Assembly (NCBI GenBank): GCA_030432235.1 | Contig: JAUIHT010000005.1 | Span: forward strand, 310,001-374,000 | DNA from: Verrucomicrobiia bacterium | Lineage (GTDB): Bacteria > Verrucomicrobiota > Verrucomicrobiia > Opitutales > Cerasicoccaceae | Length of the DNA: 64,000 nucleotides | Direction: 5' to 3' | Part shown: positions 53,308-60,441 of the stretch, piece by piece | Numbering within the stretch: position 1 is the first letter of the stretch | Layout: every line of letters starts with the position of its first letter | The notes under the pieces: generated by a model | Told to the model about the DNA's origin: nothing | Seen by the model: only the letters and a program-made list of their open reading frames with translations | The model's database searches: none | Made by a program: the position numbers and the translations under genes

Positions 53308-53895
53308 TTACTTCATGAAGTGGGTCCAGTTGCTGTCGATTTCAGCCTCGGGCACGGAACTGGAAAACGGTCGCCAGCGTGGGCGCTTGGGATGCTTTTT
53401 CAGGTGCATGCCGGCCTTGTGCGGCAGACGGTTTGCCTTGCGCGTGTTGCAGGGGATGCAGGACGTGACGATGTTCTCCCAGGAGGTCTTACCCCCCATA
53501 TCTCTGGGAATAACGTGGTCCAGATTCAATTCCTTCTCGTGAAAGTGTCCGCCGCAGTACTGGCAGACATAGCCATCCCGCTCGAACACAGCGCGGCGGT
53601 TAAACTTCACTTCCTTGGCTGGGATGCGATCGTAGCCGCGCAGCAGAAGTACCGACGGGATACGTACTTTCATACGCACCGTGTGCAGGCAATCGCTGTC
53701 CTTGCGGGGCGGTTTTTCCAGGGAGAATTCCAGCCACTCGGTCCCGGTCATGACGCGGAACTCGCCGTCGATGGTGTTAATAACCTGAGCGTGGTCCTGC
53801 ATCAACAGGCTGAAGGCGCGCTTTACCCCGACGATGTTAACTGCCTGCCACAGGCGGTTTAGCACCAAAATCCGACGTGAGAGCGCATCTGCCAT
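53308..53895 (-). CDS. HNH endonuclease
   Basis: 195 residues. After an N-terminal region common to bacterial McrA-like HNH proteins (RRILVLNRLWQAVNIVGVKR), the zinc/HNH module reads VFERDGYVCQYCGGHFHEKE, NLDHVIPRDMGGKTSWENIV and TSCIPCNTRKANRLP, with both CxxC pairs and the His-Asn-His core. Stand-alone proteins of this type are widespread chromosomal genes whose target is unclear. There is no methylase nearby, so restriction is not implied. Confidence 0.92.
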   Translation of the reverse strand: MADALSRRILVLNRLWQAVNIVGVKRAFSLLMQDHAQVINTIDGEFRVMTGTEWLEFSLEKPPRKDSDCLHTVRMKVRIPSVLLLRGYDRIPAKEVKFNRRAVFERDGYVCQYCGGHFHEKELNLDHVIPRDMGGKTSWENIVTSCIPCNTRKANRLPHKAGMHLKKHPKRPRWRPFSSSVPEAEIDSNWTHFMK

Positions 53896-53943: not shown

Positions 53944-53955
53944 CGCAACGTTGCG
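53944..53955. promoter_or_regulatory. 12-bp perfect palindrome in a divergent promoter region
   Basis: CGCAACGTTGCG lies 49 bp from the HNH start and 83 bp from the next gene. It is a candidate operator; the regulator is unknown. Confidence 0.4.
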
Positions 53956-54037
53956 AAGCTGTTACATTTTCCTGGCGCCGATAAGAGCGTGAGAATCCAT
54001 TTGCAAAGTCGGAAACCGAGCCACTAGCCTGCCCGCC

Positions 54038-54757
54038 ATGCGTGCCCTCATCGTGCTGTGCCTGTTCCCCATACTGTTTGTTTCCCTGCAAGCCACCGTC
54101 GATGATCCTGCGCTGGAGGCCCTGCTCGAGCGACATATCGAGGCGCTGGGCGGCCGTGTGGCTATGCAGAGCATAAAAACGCTCAGGGAGAGCGGGCTTA
54201 TCATTTCAGCCGACGAAAAAGACAAGAAGCTGCTGCTGGTGCGCAAGCGGCCGAACCTGATACGTCTGAACATCATCGCCGACGAGATCCGTCTCATCGT
54301 GGGCTATGACGGCAAGGAGGTCTGGTACTATTACGACTTCCATGGCGAACGCAAAAGCCCGGAGGAGAAGCACGAGGAGCTCTCAGCCATCAAGCGCGAT
54401 TCCTTTTTCTGGCCGCCTCCGTCCGAATTTGAAGACACCGCCTACCACTTCGAACAACTCGAGGATGAGGAAATCAACGGCAAGTCTCAATACGTGGTTA
54501 AGTTGACCATCGAGGGCATGCCGGGACATGAGCTTTTTTATCTGGATCAAAACACGATGATGATTTCACGCCGTACGGTCTTCGCGGGCGATGAAACCAC
54601 GATCATCACGGATTATTCAGCCTACCGCCTGGTAAACGGCGTACGCATGCCCTATCGCATGGAAACCACCAGTGACAAAGGCAAGACGGTGACTATCACG
54701 ATGGATTCGATTAAGGCCAACAAAGGCGTATTCGACTCCTACTTCGAGAAGCCCTGA
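54038..54757 (+). CDS. LolA/LolB-like periplasmic protein
   Basis: 239 residues with a signal peptide (MRALIVLCLFPILFVSLQA). The body fits the half-barrel of outer-membrane lipoprotein-sorting proteins: LLERHIEALGGRVAMQSIKT, then long beta strands KKLLLVRKRPNLIRLNIIAD and GYDGKEVWYYYDFHG, and YLDQNTMMISRR. It is probably a lipid or lipoprotein carrier in the periplasm, but a partner Lol ABC system is not in the window. Its stop is 11 bp from the convergent chaperone gene. Confidence 0.72.
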   Translation: MRALIVLCLFPILFVSLQATVDDPALEALLERHIEALGGRVAMQSIKTLRESGLIISADEKDKKLLLVRKRPNLIRLNIIADEIRLIVGYDGKEVWYYYDFHGERKSPEEKHEELSAIKRDSFFWPPPSEFEDTAYHFEQLEDEEINGKSQYVVKLTIEGMPGHELFYLDQNTMMISRRTVFAGDETTIITDYSAYRLVNGVRMPYRMETTSDKGKTVTITMDSIKANKGVFDSYFEKP

Positions 54758-56565: not shown

Positions 56566-57771
56566 ATGGGAGTATCACCAGAGACGGATTACGGGTTGGA
56601 AGGTTTCGGCACTTCCGCCTCCAAGCTGTTTGCCGCGGTCATGGAGCAATCGCCCGATCATATCTATATCAAGGATACCGCCAGTCGCTTTATTGCCATC
56701 AGCCGCGCCATGGCCCGGGACTTCGGTCTGGATTCTCCCAAGGATGCCATCGGCAAAACCGACTTTGACATCTTCACTGAGGAGCACGCCCGTCAGGCTT
56801 ACGAAGACGAGCAGGAAATCCTGCGGACCGGCACGCCCATCCTGAACAAGGTGGAAAAGGAAACCTGGGAGGACGGCCACGTCACCTGGGTATCCTCGAC
56901 CAAAGCTCCTCTCTTCCTAGGTAGTGGAAAAATCGTCGGCCTCATCGGCATCTCCCGCGACGTCACCTCTGAGCATGAGGCACAGCAGGCCCTCGAAGCC
57001 AACGAGCGCAAACTGAAGCAGCGTGACGTGCATATCCGGCGTGACCTGCGCAGCGCCCGCCACGTCCAGCAGGTTTTCATTCCCGGCGATATCCCCAAGG
57101 TACCGGGCCTCAAGCTTGCCCTGCGCCTGCTGCCCATGGAGGAGGTCGGCGGCGACATTATCACCTTTCCTGTCGGCCAAAGACACGGCCTGCTTTTCTT
57201 TCTTGGGGACGTTACCGGCCACGGGGTGACCGCCGCGCTCTTCACCCTCCTGGTCAAGTACCTGACCGACCGACAGGGAGAGGGCTACGATGGCAGCCCG
57301 CAACACTTCCTCAAACAAATCAACGGTGGCCTGATCGGACGCATCCCCGACGGCTTCGTGGCTGGCTTGTGCGGGCATCTGCTGCCCCGCCCCAACGGAG
57401 GAGCCACCTTGCTGGCCTCCAACGCCGGACATCCGGAATTCATCCACTACCAAAAGGCCACAGACCGCGCCGAGTTGGTCAAGCTGCCCATGGGTAACGT
57501 CCTCGGGTTACCCCTGGAGGCCGGTTCGCCCGATACTTCCTACGAGTTGGAGCCCGGAGACCGGTTGCTCTTTTTCACCGACGGCATTATCGAAATGCCC
57601 AACTCCAAAGGCGGGGAATTCGGCCACAATCGCACGGTAGCCGCTCTGGCTAATTGCAGCAAGCTACCTCTGGAAGAGGCGGCCGACCGGCTCATTACGG
57701 AGGCGCGTGCCTTCAGCGGCGGAGGCAAACCCAAGGACGATCTATCCCTGCTATTGATTGAAATCGAATAG
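56566..57771 (+). CDS. PAS domain-SpoIIE type PP2C phosphatase
   Basis: 401 residues. A PAS sensor (about 19-140: FAAVMEQSPDHIYIKDTASR, then WVSSTKAPLFLGSGKIVGLI) is joined by a helical linker to a SpoIIE/RsbU-like serine phosphatase (about 170-401). Metal-binding aspartates lie in MEEVGGDIITFPVG, GDVTGHGVTAALFTLLVKYL, DRLLFFTDGIIE and KDDLSLLLIEI. Such proteins dephosphorylate anti-anti-sigma factors in partner-switching stress responses. No anti-sigma partner is adjacent. A signal-controlled regulator is inferred. Confidence 0.9.
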   Translation: MGVSPETDYGLEGFGTSASKLFAAVMEQSPDHIYIKDTASRFIAISRAMARDFGLDSPKDAIGKTDFDIFTEEHARQAYEDEQEILRTGTPILNKVEKETWEDGHVTWVSSTKAPLFLGSGKIVGLIGISRDVTSEHEAQQALEANERKLKQRDVHIRRDLRSARHVQQVFIPGDIPKVPGLKLALRLLPMEEVGGDIITFPVGQRHGLLFFLGDVTGHGVTAALFTLLVKYLTDRQGEGYDGSPQHFLKQINGGLIGRIPDGFVAGLCGHLLPRPNGGATLLASNAGHPEFIHYQKATDRAELVKLPMGNVLGLPLEAGSPDTSYELEPGDRLLFFTDGIIEMPNSKGGEFGHNRTVAALANCSKLPLEEAADRLITEARAFSGGGKPKDDLSLLLIEIE

Positions 57772-57812: not shown

Positions 57813-57850
57813 CGTATAAAAAGCGTAACGAAATCGTAAGCAGAGCGTAA
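57813..57850 (+). promoter_or_regulatory. four direct repeats at 11-bp spacing, PhoB/OmpR-type operator candidate
   Basis: CGTAT at 57813 and CGTAA at 57824, 57835 and 57846 are exactly 11 bp (one helical turn) apart. CGTAACG-AAAT-CGTAAGC has the Pho-box layout of two 7-bp repeats with a 4-bp AT spacer, though not its E. coli sequence. The palindrome GACCA-ct-TGGTC (57853-57864) follows at once. It is 71 nt upstream of the DUF1800 gene. Confidence 0.6.
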
Positions 57851-57921
57851 AAGACCACTTGGTCCACGAATCCGGCTGGAAAATAAGGCCGTGATACTGT
57901 AGGCATTTAGCCCTAGAATCA

Positions 57922-60441
57922 ATGAATCGCCTACCCATATTTCTGACCGTCTGCCTAATCTCCTCAATTAGCGCGCGTGCTATGGTCGACGACAACGGCA
58001 ATGGCCTGAGTGACGTCTGGGAGATGGTCAATGACGCCGACGGCCTGAGCGGTGCCCTGGATTCCGACCACGACGGGGCGACCGATGCCCAGGAGGCGGA
58101 AGCCGGTACTCACCCCCTGAATCCCCATTCCCGCTTTAGCGTCGGTATGAACGGCGACGAAGTCAGTTGGATGGCCCAACCCGGCAAACTGTATTCCGTG
58201 GAACGCAGCCAGGACCTCACGGCAGTTACATGGGAAACGGTCGGCACCTTCGTCGGCCTGGGATACACACAGAGCTTTATCGACGAGCAGGCCGAAGGTA
58301 CTTGGTTTTACCGCATCGTGGCCCTGGACACCGATACCGACGCCGACGGGGTCAACGACTGGGAGGAAATGCAGGTCGGCTACGACCCGAATAGCGCCTA
58401 CAGCCTGCGACTCCCGCAGACAGACCTGCAACGCCTCACCACCGCCCTCGGCACGGCCAACCAGGTATCCGTCGCAGCCATCGATCCGGTCACCTCGGAA
58501 AGTTGGCCAGACCCGGCAGTCTTCGTCCTGCGGCGTAGCGGTGGTGTGAACGCCTTTAATGCCAGCGTAGCCCTTACCGGTACGGCCGTCCAGGGAAGCG
58601 ACTACGCGGCGGTCACCTTGCCCGTAGCCTTTGCCCCGGGGCAAATCGAGGCCTACGTTTACATTACTCCCCTGGAAGACGCCGCTGTCGAGGGCGACGA
58701 GACGGTCATCCTCACCCTGCAAAGTTCTGCCGACTACAGCATCGGCACGGATACGGACACCGTGACCATCCAGGATGCCAGCTACCTCCCCACCGCCAAG
58801 GAGGCCGCACGCTTCCTCAGCCAGGCCACCTTCGGACCCACGCCGGAGTTGATCGCGGAAGTGCAAAGCATGGGCATCGAGGCCTGGATCGACGACCAGT
58901 TCACGCAGCCCGTGGGCGAGCTCCAGCCTGTGCTCGACGCGATCGACTGGGGCGAAGGCGAAGGACAGATTGCGGGCCCCTACAACCATCACAAGTTACT
59001 GGCATGGTGGGAACAGGCCATGCGAGGCCCAGACCCCCTGCGGCAACGCGTCGGGTTTGCCATGAGCGAGATTTTTGTCGTTTCGGATAACTCCGTGGAG
59101 ATTCCGCGAGGCGTGCTTAACTATTACGACATGCTCCTGAACAACGCGTTCGGCAACTACCGCGAGCTCATTGAGGACATCACTTATCACCCCGTCATGG
59201 GCGTCTATCTGAGCCATCGCGGCAACCAGCCGCCCGACCCGGCCCTGAACCGCTTCCCGGATGAAAACTACGCGCGTGAAATCATGCAGCTGTTTTCCAT
59301 CGGCCTGTGGATGCTCAACAATGACGGCACGCAGCAGCTCGACGGCCTGGGCAATCCCATAGCCACCTACGACAACGACGACATTACCAATCTCGCCCGC
59401 GTCTTCACCGGCATGAGCTGGGGCTATGGGAACACCTCCGTCTGGTGGGAGTTCTTTTGGCCGGATACTACGGCCGATTACACCGAGTACTATCTTATCC
59501 CGATGGCAGTCTGGAACGGCCCCTACTCCGTCTGGGTGGAGACCGAACCTGATGTGTGGGAAGAAACGACCGTCTACTACCACGACCAGGACGCCAAAAC
59601 TGTACTCGGCGTCGACCTGCCCGCCAACGATCCGCTCAGCCCCGAGCCCGGCTACGCCGTCAACGACATCGACCGCGCCCTCGACGTGCTGTTCAACCAC
59701 CAGAACACCGCCCCCTTCATCGCGCACGCGCTCATCCAGCGCATGGTCACGTCTAATCCCTCGCCCGCCTATGTGGCACGTGTGGCCGAGGCCTTCAACG
59801 GCGGCGGTCCCTACAACCCCGGAGGCATCCGCGGTGACATGAAAGCGGTCATCAAGGCCATCTTTCTAGACCCCGAGGCTCGCAGTCTGGACAGCCAGGA
59901 CACCGCGACCTTCGGCAAGCTGCGCGTGCCCTACCTGCGCTATATCGCTTTCTCGCGCGCCTTCAACGCTCTGCCGGGTGAGGGCTCCGTCTATGGTTCG
60001 CTCTATGAAGTCTTATGGATCGGCGGCGACCTCGGCATGCAGCCCATGAGCTCGCCCAGCGTTTTCAACTTCTACCAACCCTATTACCAGCCGCCCGGTA
60101 CGATTAAAGACCTCGGTCTGACCGGACCGGAATTCCAGATCACCAACGCCGTTACCGGCATCACCCTGCCCAACCTTTTCTTCAGTTCCGTTTTCTGGGG
60201 TTACCCCGGCCCGAATGTCGAGATCGACATCTCTCCCATCACTGCCATGGCCGGAGACATTGACGCCATGCTCGATTACCTCGACAGCCTGCTGACCTAC
60301 GGGTCGCTTGGCGAGAGCACCCGGCAGACCGTTTATTACGCTCTCACGCGCTCGGACACCGCCTACATCGACAACCAGCAGCGCGCCCAGTTGGCCATTT
60401 TCCTCATCGTCACCTCGCCGGACTTCGCCGTGATTCGCTAA
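57922..60441 (+). CDS. secreted DUF1800 protein with calcium-binding repeats and Calx-beta domain
   Basis: 839 residues. A signal peptide is followed by thrombospondin type 3-like Asp-rich repeats (DDNGNGLSDVWEM, LDSDHDGATDAQEAEAGTHP) and a second set near 136. A Calx-beta-like domain (about 195-285, EGDETVILTLQSSADYSIGT) precedes a DUF1800 domain from about 290 (AARFLSQATFGPTPELIAEV) to the end. DUF1800 proteins are abundant in Planctomycetes and Verrucomicrobia; the function is unknown. The next gene encodes DUF1501, 12 nt downstream, the standard pairing. Confidence 0.92.
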   Translation: MNRLPIFLTVCLISSISARAMVDDNGNGLSDVWEMVNDADGLSGALDSDHDGATDAQEAEAGTHPLNPHSRFSVGMNGDEVSWMAQPGKLYSVERSQDLTAVTWETVGTFVGLGYTQSFIDEQAEGTWFYRIVALDTDTDADGVNDWEEMQVGYDPNSAYSLRLPQTDLQRLTTALGTANQVSVAAIDPVTSESWPDPAVFVLRRSGGVNAFNASVALTGTAVQGSDYAAVTLPVAFAPGQIEAYVYITPLEDAAVEGDETVILTLQSSADYSIGTDTDTVTIQDASYLPTAKEAARFLSQATFGPTPELIAEVQSMGIEAWIDDQFTQPVGELQPVLDAIDWGEGEGQIAGPYNHHKLLAWWEQAMRGPDPLRQRVGFAMSEIFVVSDNSVEIPRGVLNYYDMLLNNAFGNYRELIEDITYHPVMGVYLSHRGNQPPDPALNRFPDENYAREIMQLFSIGLWMLNNDGTQQLDGLGNPIATYDNDDITNLARVFTGMSWGYGNTSVWWEFFWPDTTADYTEYYLIPMAVWNGPYSVWVETEPDVWEETTVYYHDQDAKTVLGVDLPANDPLSPEPGYAVNDIDRALDVLFNHQNTAPFIAHALIQRMVTSNPSPAYVARVAEAFNGGGPYNPGGIRGDMKAVIKAIFLDPEARSLDSQDTATFGKLRVPYLRYIAFSRAFNALPGEGSVYGSLYEVLWIGGDLGMQPMSSPSVFNFYQPYYQPPGTIKDLGLTGPEFQITNAVTGITLPNLFFSSVFWGYPGPNVEIDISPITAMAGDIDAMLDYLDSLLTYGSLGESTRQTVYYALTRSDTAYIDNQQRAQLAIFLIVTSPDFAVIR

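What the first reader, a model, noticed from the sequence alone, without database searches (positions are those of the whole stretch)
57813..57864. Four half-sites at exact 11-bp spacing upstream of the DUF1800/DUF1501 operon
Direct repeats at one helical turn are the hallmark of OmpR/PhoB-family binding sites. CGTAACG-AAAT-CGTAAGC copies the Pho-box layout. DUF1501 is related to the alkaline-phosphatase fold, so phosphate control of this widespread but unexplained operon type is an attractive hypothesis.
Basis: partly seen in the sequence, partly recalled or inferred. Interest (0 to 1): 0.52.

Follow-up and report, generated by a model that had tools for sequence, protein, structure and literature searches.

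The report
Four-site regulator switch before mystery operon
Four evenly spaced copies of a short DNA word in front of an unexplained bacterial operon are very probably a docking strip for a sensor-driven gene switch of the PhoB type, but whether that switch senses phosphate or something else is still open.

Summary
CGTAT/CGTAA/CGTAA/CGTAA start at 57813, 57824, 57835 and 57846, exactly 11 bp apart, just before a DUF1800-DUF1501 operon. It is not chance: it is the only such array in the window, 1 of 150 simulated windows has one, and the orthologous operon of a sister genus has four half-sites at 11 bp in the same place. It is best read as an OmpR/PhoB-family response-regulator operator.

The phosphate reading is partly supported. 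I derived this order's Pho box from pstS promoters. It shares the layout and core, and own pst carries it. The 57824 pair is the window's best Pho-like site (14 of 18 bases shared with the pst box) but scores 12.9 bits against 19-26 for strong boxes; the sister array scores 8.2.

A rival regulator turned up. A VWA-kinase-regulator operon (RR2) carries four GTMA half-sites at 11 bp across the order. In both genomes the RR2 and DUF1800 operons hold the best four-site arrays genome-wide (with one more in the sister). Half-site letters favour PhoB here and RR2 in the sister. Four other orthologues lack the array, so the regulator stays unresolved.

The parts
57813..57817 (+). half-site 1, CGTAT (one mismatch to YGTMA)
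   Evidence: scores near 0 or below in both half-site models
57824..57828 (+). half-site 2, CGTAA (followed by C: Pho-like)
   Evidence: pair 57824-57841 is the top Pho-matrix site of the window, 12.9 bits
57835..57839 (+). half-site 3, CGTAA (followed by G: RR2-like)
57846..57850 (+). half-site 4, CGTAA (followed by A)
57922..60441 (+). DUF1800 protein with TSP3 repeat and Calx-beta domain, first gene of the operon under the array
   Evidence: ORF; PF08811, 291.8 bits
60454..61878 (+). DUF1501 protein, second gene, 12 bp after the first
   Evidence: ORF; PF07394, 115.3 bits
56566..57771 (+). PAS-SpoIIE phosphatase gene upstream; ends 41 bp before the array; not conserved as neighbour in G001

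Best explanation
The four repeats are an operator for an OmpR/PhoB-family response regulator, bound head to tail with one DNA-binding domain per 11-bp unit (two tandem dimers), which sets transcription of the DUF1800-DUF1501 operon. Shown here: the array, its significance, and its conservation in place and spacing in one sister genus. Inferred: the binding, the regulator and the sign of regulation. My first choice of regulator is RR2, encoded in a VWA-(SIMPL)-histidine kinase-regulator operon that carries the same four-site design before its own operon (about 0.45). PhoB is a close second (about 0.35), another OmpR-type regulator is possible (about 0.1). The confidence given is for the operator claim, not for the choice of regulator.
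For: Single hit at spacing 11 and at no other spacing; 1 of 150 simulated windows. G001, another genus, has CGTAA/CGTCA/CGTCA/GGTAA at 11 bp starting 119 bp before its ATG (own: 109) although its upstream gene differs. Searching both genomes for YGTMA x4: at one mismatch or less G000 has only the RR2 operon and the DUF1800 operon, G001 these two and a CIA30-domain gene. GTMA x4 at 11 bp: 28 arrays in 21 of 54 genomes, reversed control 0 in 54; 19 of the 28 precede HK2 and RR2 genes (17 of 20 regions, plus G000 and G001). The G001 DUF1800 array lies on the RR2 side of the half-site log-odds, +12.8. Head-to-tail binding to 11-bp direct repeats is general for the family (passages of PMC4832192 and PMC4415409).
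Against: No binding or expression data. The own array lies on the Pho side of the log-odds, -5.2. RR2 arrays have T before units 3 and 4 and the core TTGTCAGGAAAATGTCA, which the DUF1800 arrays lack. At its own operon the RR2 array is in the opposite orientation to the gene; at DUF1800 it is in the same orientation. Four of six full-length DUF1800 orthologues (G005, G007, G009, G030) have no array although all four genomes have RR2.
Confidence: 0.82

Rival explanations
1. The array is a weak, multi-unit Pho box: PhoB controls DUF1800-DUF1501 when phosphate is short.
For: Order-wide Pho box derived de novo from 30 pstS-like upstream regions has the same 11-bp layout and GTMA core (log-likelihood 144.6 against 57.9-63.2 in 6 shuffled sets). 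The 57824 pair ranks first of about 128,000 window positions, matches own pst at 14 of 18 bases, has the same orientation to its gene as pst, and the own array's log-odds are -5.2, within the pst range of -22.3 to -4.6. The genome has a PhoB-like regulator (239 bits, under the cut-off of 296) beside a PhoR/PnpS-like kinase.
Against: 12.9 bits against 24.3 for own pst and 19-26 for other strong boxes. The G001 array scores 8.2 and has log-odds +12.8. No TATxxT stands 10 bp after the array. Strong Pho boxes here have two or three units, not four. Own pst was in the training set, which favours this reading slightly.
Confidence: 0.35
2. Another OmpR-type regulator of the strain reads the array, for example the one at G000 C7:100029-100724 (L085), which has a counterpart in G001 (L084).
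For: Neither the PhoB nor the RR2 half-site fits both arrays. Several other OmpR-type regulators are encoded. A peroxidase gene in G000 has three GTAAA-type units of its own (L050).
Against: No YGTMA pair lies in the 1,500 bp before any of the eight other regulator genes examined.
Confidence: 0.1
3. The repeats are chance or a leftover without function.
For: Four of six full-length orthologues lack the array. The two-unit pattern is not enriched genome-wide.
Against: 1 of 150 simulated windows; the same four-unit design before the orthologous operon of another genus.
Confidence: 0.08

Closest known systems
Pho box of PhoB (E. coli CTGTCAT-N4-CTGTCAT; passages of PMC4415409 and PMC4832192)
   Same: Direct repeats every 11 bp, GTMA core, upstream of an operon; own pst carries a box of the same layout
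   Different: Four units instead of two; units mostly lack the C after GTMA; low matrix score; no -10-like TATxxT at 10 bp
Complex PhoP operators of Streptomyces coelicolor (passage of PMC4415409)
   Same: Variable number of 11-bp direct repeat units of varying quality
   Different: Unit is GTTCACC there; CGTAA here
Four-site operator of the VWA-(SIMPL)-HK2-RR2 operon in this order (described here)
   Same: Four GTMA units at exactly 11 bp, unique or nearly unique per genome
   Different: Opposite orientation to its gene; T before units 3 and 4; consensus GTCAG and TTGTCAGGAAAATGTCA, absent at DUF1800

Membership tests
OmpR/PhoB-family operator | Direct repeats one helical turn (10-11 bp) apart | tested here: met
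   Only spacing 11 gives a hit
OmpR/PhoB-family operator | Upstream of a regulated gene and conserved there | tested here: inconclusive
   Conserved in 2 of 6 full-length orthologues
OmpR/PhoB-family operator | Bound by a response regulator | not testable with these tools
   Needs gel shift or footprint
Pho box (PhoB regulon) | Half-site YGTMAC as at pst promoters of the order | tested here: inconclusive
   One unit of four has GTAAC; best pair 12.9 bits, rank 1 in the window, against 24.3 at own pst; 8.2 in G001
Pho box (PhoB regulon) | TATxxT 10 bp after the box, as at pst of G000 and G001 | tested here: not met
   Present at both pst promoters, absent after 57850; a feature seen at two promoters only, so a weak criterion
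Pho box (PhoB regulon) | Operon responds to phosphate through PhoB | not testable with these tools
   No expression data
RR2 four-site operator | Four GTMA units at 11 bp | tested here: met
   Own array 1 mismatch to YGTMA x4, G001 array 1 mismatch
RR2 four-site operator | Letters around GTMA (GTCAG, TTGTCAGGAAAATGTCA) | tested here: not met
   Consensus; log-odds -5.2 here, +12.8 in G001, against 10.1 to 35.5 for RR2 arrays. I therefore do not file it as a member; 'works like it' stands

The most novel reading that the evidence does not exclude
A kinase-regulator pair linked to VWA and SIMPL proteins, found across this verrucomicrobial order with a four-site operator before its own operon, also switches the DUF1800-DUF1501 operon. 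That would place these unexplained proteins in an RR2 regulon of unknown, perhaps envelope-related, signal rather than in the phosphate regulon.
Probability: 0.42. Interest if true: 0.55.

Novelty: new member of a known kind. Interest (0 to 1): 0.42.

Why it matters
In the searched library 4 papers mention DUF1800 and 10 mention DUF1501, and none holds both names together with 'phosphate', so when this operon type is used is an open question. A defined operator with two named candidate regulators makes that directly testable with a reporter. The work also yields a Pho-box matrix for this order and a second, clearly conserved operator tied to one two-component system.

Tried and rejected
Exact CGTAA-N6-CGTAA as a genome-wide mark: no enrichment, 9 matches against 9 control matches; of the 7 sites outside the array, 4 lie inside genes and one (L009) is a strong Pho box of 23.2 bits. 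Conservation beyond the sister genus: G005, G007, G009 and G030 show no array; of 42 named-record loci, 3 were too short to judge and 2 of the other 39 have a single GTMA pair, none an array. Other DUF1800 genes: 13 loci scanned, no YGTMA pair; best Pho score 14.8 at L023. Plasmid records: no match. Promoter scan: one weak sigma-70-like site at 57891-57919, too close to the ATG to trust. The arrays of G011 (two), G008 (L130) and G035 were looked at but not explained. The first alignment of upstream regions used two loci in the wrong orientation and was replaced.

Rows dropped: the Pho matrix uses 18 of 30 pstS-like loci (EM score 14 or more); 11 lower-scoring loci and the own genome were left out. 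Some of the 30 loci match PstS at only about 35% identity and may not be pst. The half-site models include own pst. The RR2 model uses the 18 of 28 arrays that lie next to a VWA match, those of G000 and G001 included.

Full report
WHAT IS THERE. The window has CGTATAAAAAG CGTAACGAAAT CGTAAGCAGAG CGTAA at 57813-57850, plus strand, between a PAS-SpoIIE phosphatase gene ending at 57771 and the ATG at 57922 of a DUF1800 protein, which is followed after 12 bp by a DUF1501 protein. Scanning for four YGTMA units with at most one mismatch gives this single hit at spacing 11; at spacings 7-10 and 12-15 there is none even with two mismatches; 1 of 150 Markov-simulated windows gives a hit. CGTA x3 at 11 bp is unique in the genome. 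The two-unit pattern CGTAA-N6-CGTAA alone is not enriched (9 against 9).

CONSERVATION. Of 54 genomes searched, six, the own one counted, have a full-length orthologue of the DUF1800 protein (53-56% identity for the other five). The sister genome G001 has CGTAAACCCTT CGTCAAGGAAA CGTCAGATTAA GGTAA starting 119 bp before its ATG, next to a different upstream gene. G005, G007, G009 and G030 have no such array and no Pho-matrix score above 6 in 350 bp. So the array is conserved in 2 of 6.

THE PHO BOX OF THIS ORDER. 30 pstS-like loci were taken. YGTMA-N6-YGTMA pairs occur upstream of 8 of 30, all 9 sites on the gene's strand. De novo EM gives cGTcACacAatTGTAACA with log-likelihood 144.6 against 57.9-63.2 for six shuffled sets. 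Own pst carries CGTCACGAAATTGTAACA and G001 pst CGTAACGCATTCGTCACT; in both, 10 bp separate the second GTMAC from TATGGT or TATTGT. With the own genome left out, the matrix scores own pst 24.3 and the array's 57824 pair 12.9, the top of about 128,000 window positions (next 11.1 at 53960, minus). The G001 array scores 8.2 at best. Strong boxes elsewhere support the matrix: a CHAD-domain gene (25.4 in G000, 22.3 in G001), a DUF3450 gene (19.3 and 20.4) and a TonB-dependent receptor (23.6). Genome-wide, GTMAC-N6-GTMACA gives 14 matches against 4 control matches in G000 but 5 against 11 in G001, so the strict pattern is informative in G000 only.

A SECOND REGULATOR. Searching GTMA x3 turned up four-unit arrays upstream of a VWA-domain gene in both genomes. 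GTMA x4 across 54 relatives gives 28 arrays in 21 genomes; the reversed control gives 0 in all 54. 18 of 28 lie next to a VWA gene. Of 20 regions fetched, 17 have HK2 and RR2 genes after the array, among them G036, which lacks the VWA gene; L206, L209 and L211 do not. With G000 and G001 this makes 19 of 28. RR2 is an OmpR-type regulator (YycF and RpaB models score highest, none over its cut-off). Its recognition-helix region is RTLDQHVAQLR against RTVDTHIRRLR in the PhoB-like regulator; what the changed positions do in E. coli PhoB is recalled. That RR2 binds these arrays is inferred from linkage.

WHICH REGULATOR? Searching both genomes for YGTMA x4 with up to two mismatches: at one mismatch or less G000 has the RR2 operon and the DUF1800 operon only; G001 has these two and a CIA30-domain gene. 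At two mismatches 5 more places appear in G000 and 3 in G001, several of them Pho-type sites or an overlapping register; control totals were 2 and 5 and are not split by mismatch. Half-site log-odds, RR2 minus Pho: pst pairs -22.3 to -4.6, RR2 arrays +10.1 to +35.5 (each left out in turn), own DUF1800 array -5.2, G001 array +12.8. With seven columns, own scores 15.8 (Pho) and 12.3 (RR2), G001 11.9 and 25.3. The two orthologous arrays thus point in opposite directions. I lean to RR2 on architecture and on G001, and hold PhoB close behind on the own half-sites.

LITERATURE. Passages of PMC4415409 and PMC4832192 give the 11-bp direct-repeat layout and head-to-tail binding. The library holds 4 papers with DUF1800, 10 with DUF1501, none with both and 'phosphate' (listings, and single passages of PMC3597751 and PMC5615132). 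One paper holds Verrucomicrobia and Pho box (listing only). One search for a VWA-kinase-regulator operon listed 12 of 80 papers; I saw titles and abstract starts only and no evident match, so novelty of that operon is not established.

VERDICT. A real operator of a known kind; its regulator is unresolved between two candidates; the phosphate hypothesis is alive but not the best supported one.

Noticed in passing
G000 C4:103886-108729 (L086), G001 C1:1155643-1160319 (L087), and 17 further regions: Conserved four-site GTMA operator before a VWA-(SIMPL)-histidine kinase-response regulator operon (VWA gene missing in G036); 19 of 28 four-unit arrays found in 54 genomes precede it.
   Followed up: partly
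G000 C37:805270-810654 (L056, L225) and G001 C1:1591104 (L051): Strong Pho boxes before a DUF3450 gene (both genomes) and, in G000, about 5 kb on before a TonB-dependent receptor gene: a possible phosphate-controlled TonB uptake locus.
   Followed up: partly
G000 C42:330929 (L228) and G001 C1:2378310-2378349 (L059): Strong Pho boxes before CYTH/CHAD genes, domains linked to polyphosphate (that link is recalled).
   Followed up: no
G030 L139, G048 L149: Second RR2-type four-site array before a different VWA gene in two genomes of one genus (Pfam VWA_4 shown for G030 only; G048 by similarity of the start).
   Followed up: no
G001 C1:4819610 (L061): RR2-like array (one mismatch to YGTMA x4) before a CIA30-domain gene.
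   Followed up: no
G000 C7:202294 (L050): Three GTAAA-type units before an animal-haem-peroxidase gene; log-odds lean to RR2 (+8.7).
   Followed up: no
window 53949-53977: Second-best Pho-like sites of the window, in the gap between the genes at 53308-53895 (minus) and 54038-54757 (plus).
   Followed up: no
L143, L144 (G005, G007) and L060 (G001): 16 identical bases GTAAAATAATAGTCAT just before a pilin-like gene in two genomes, and inside a gene in a third.
   Followed up: no
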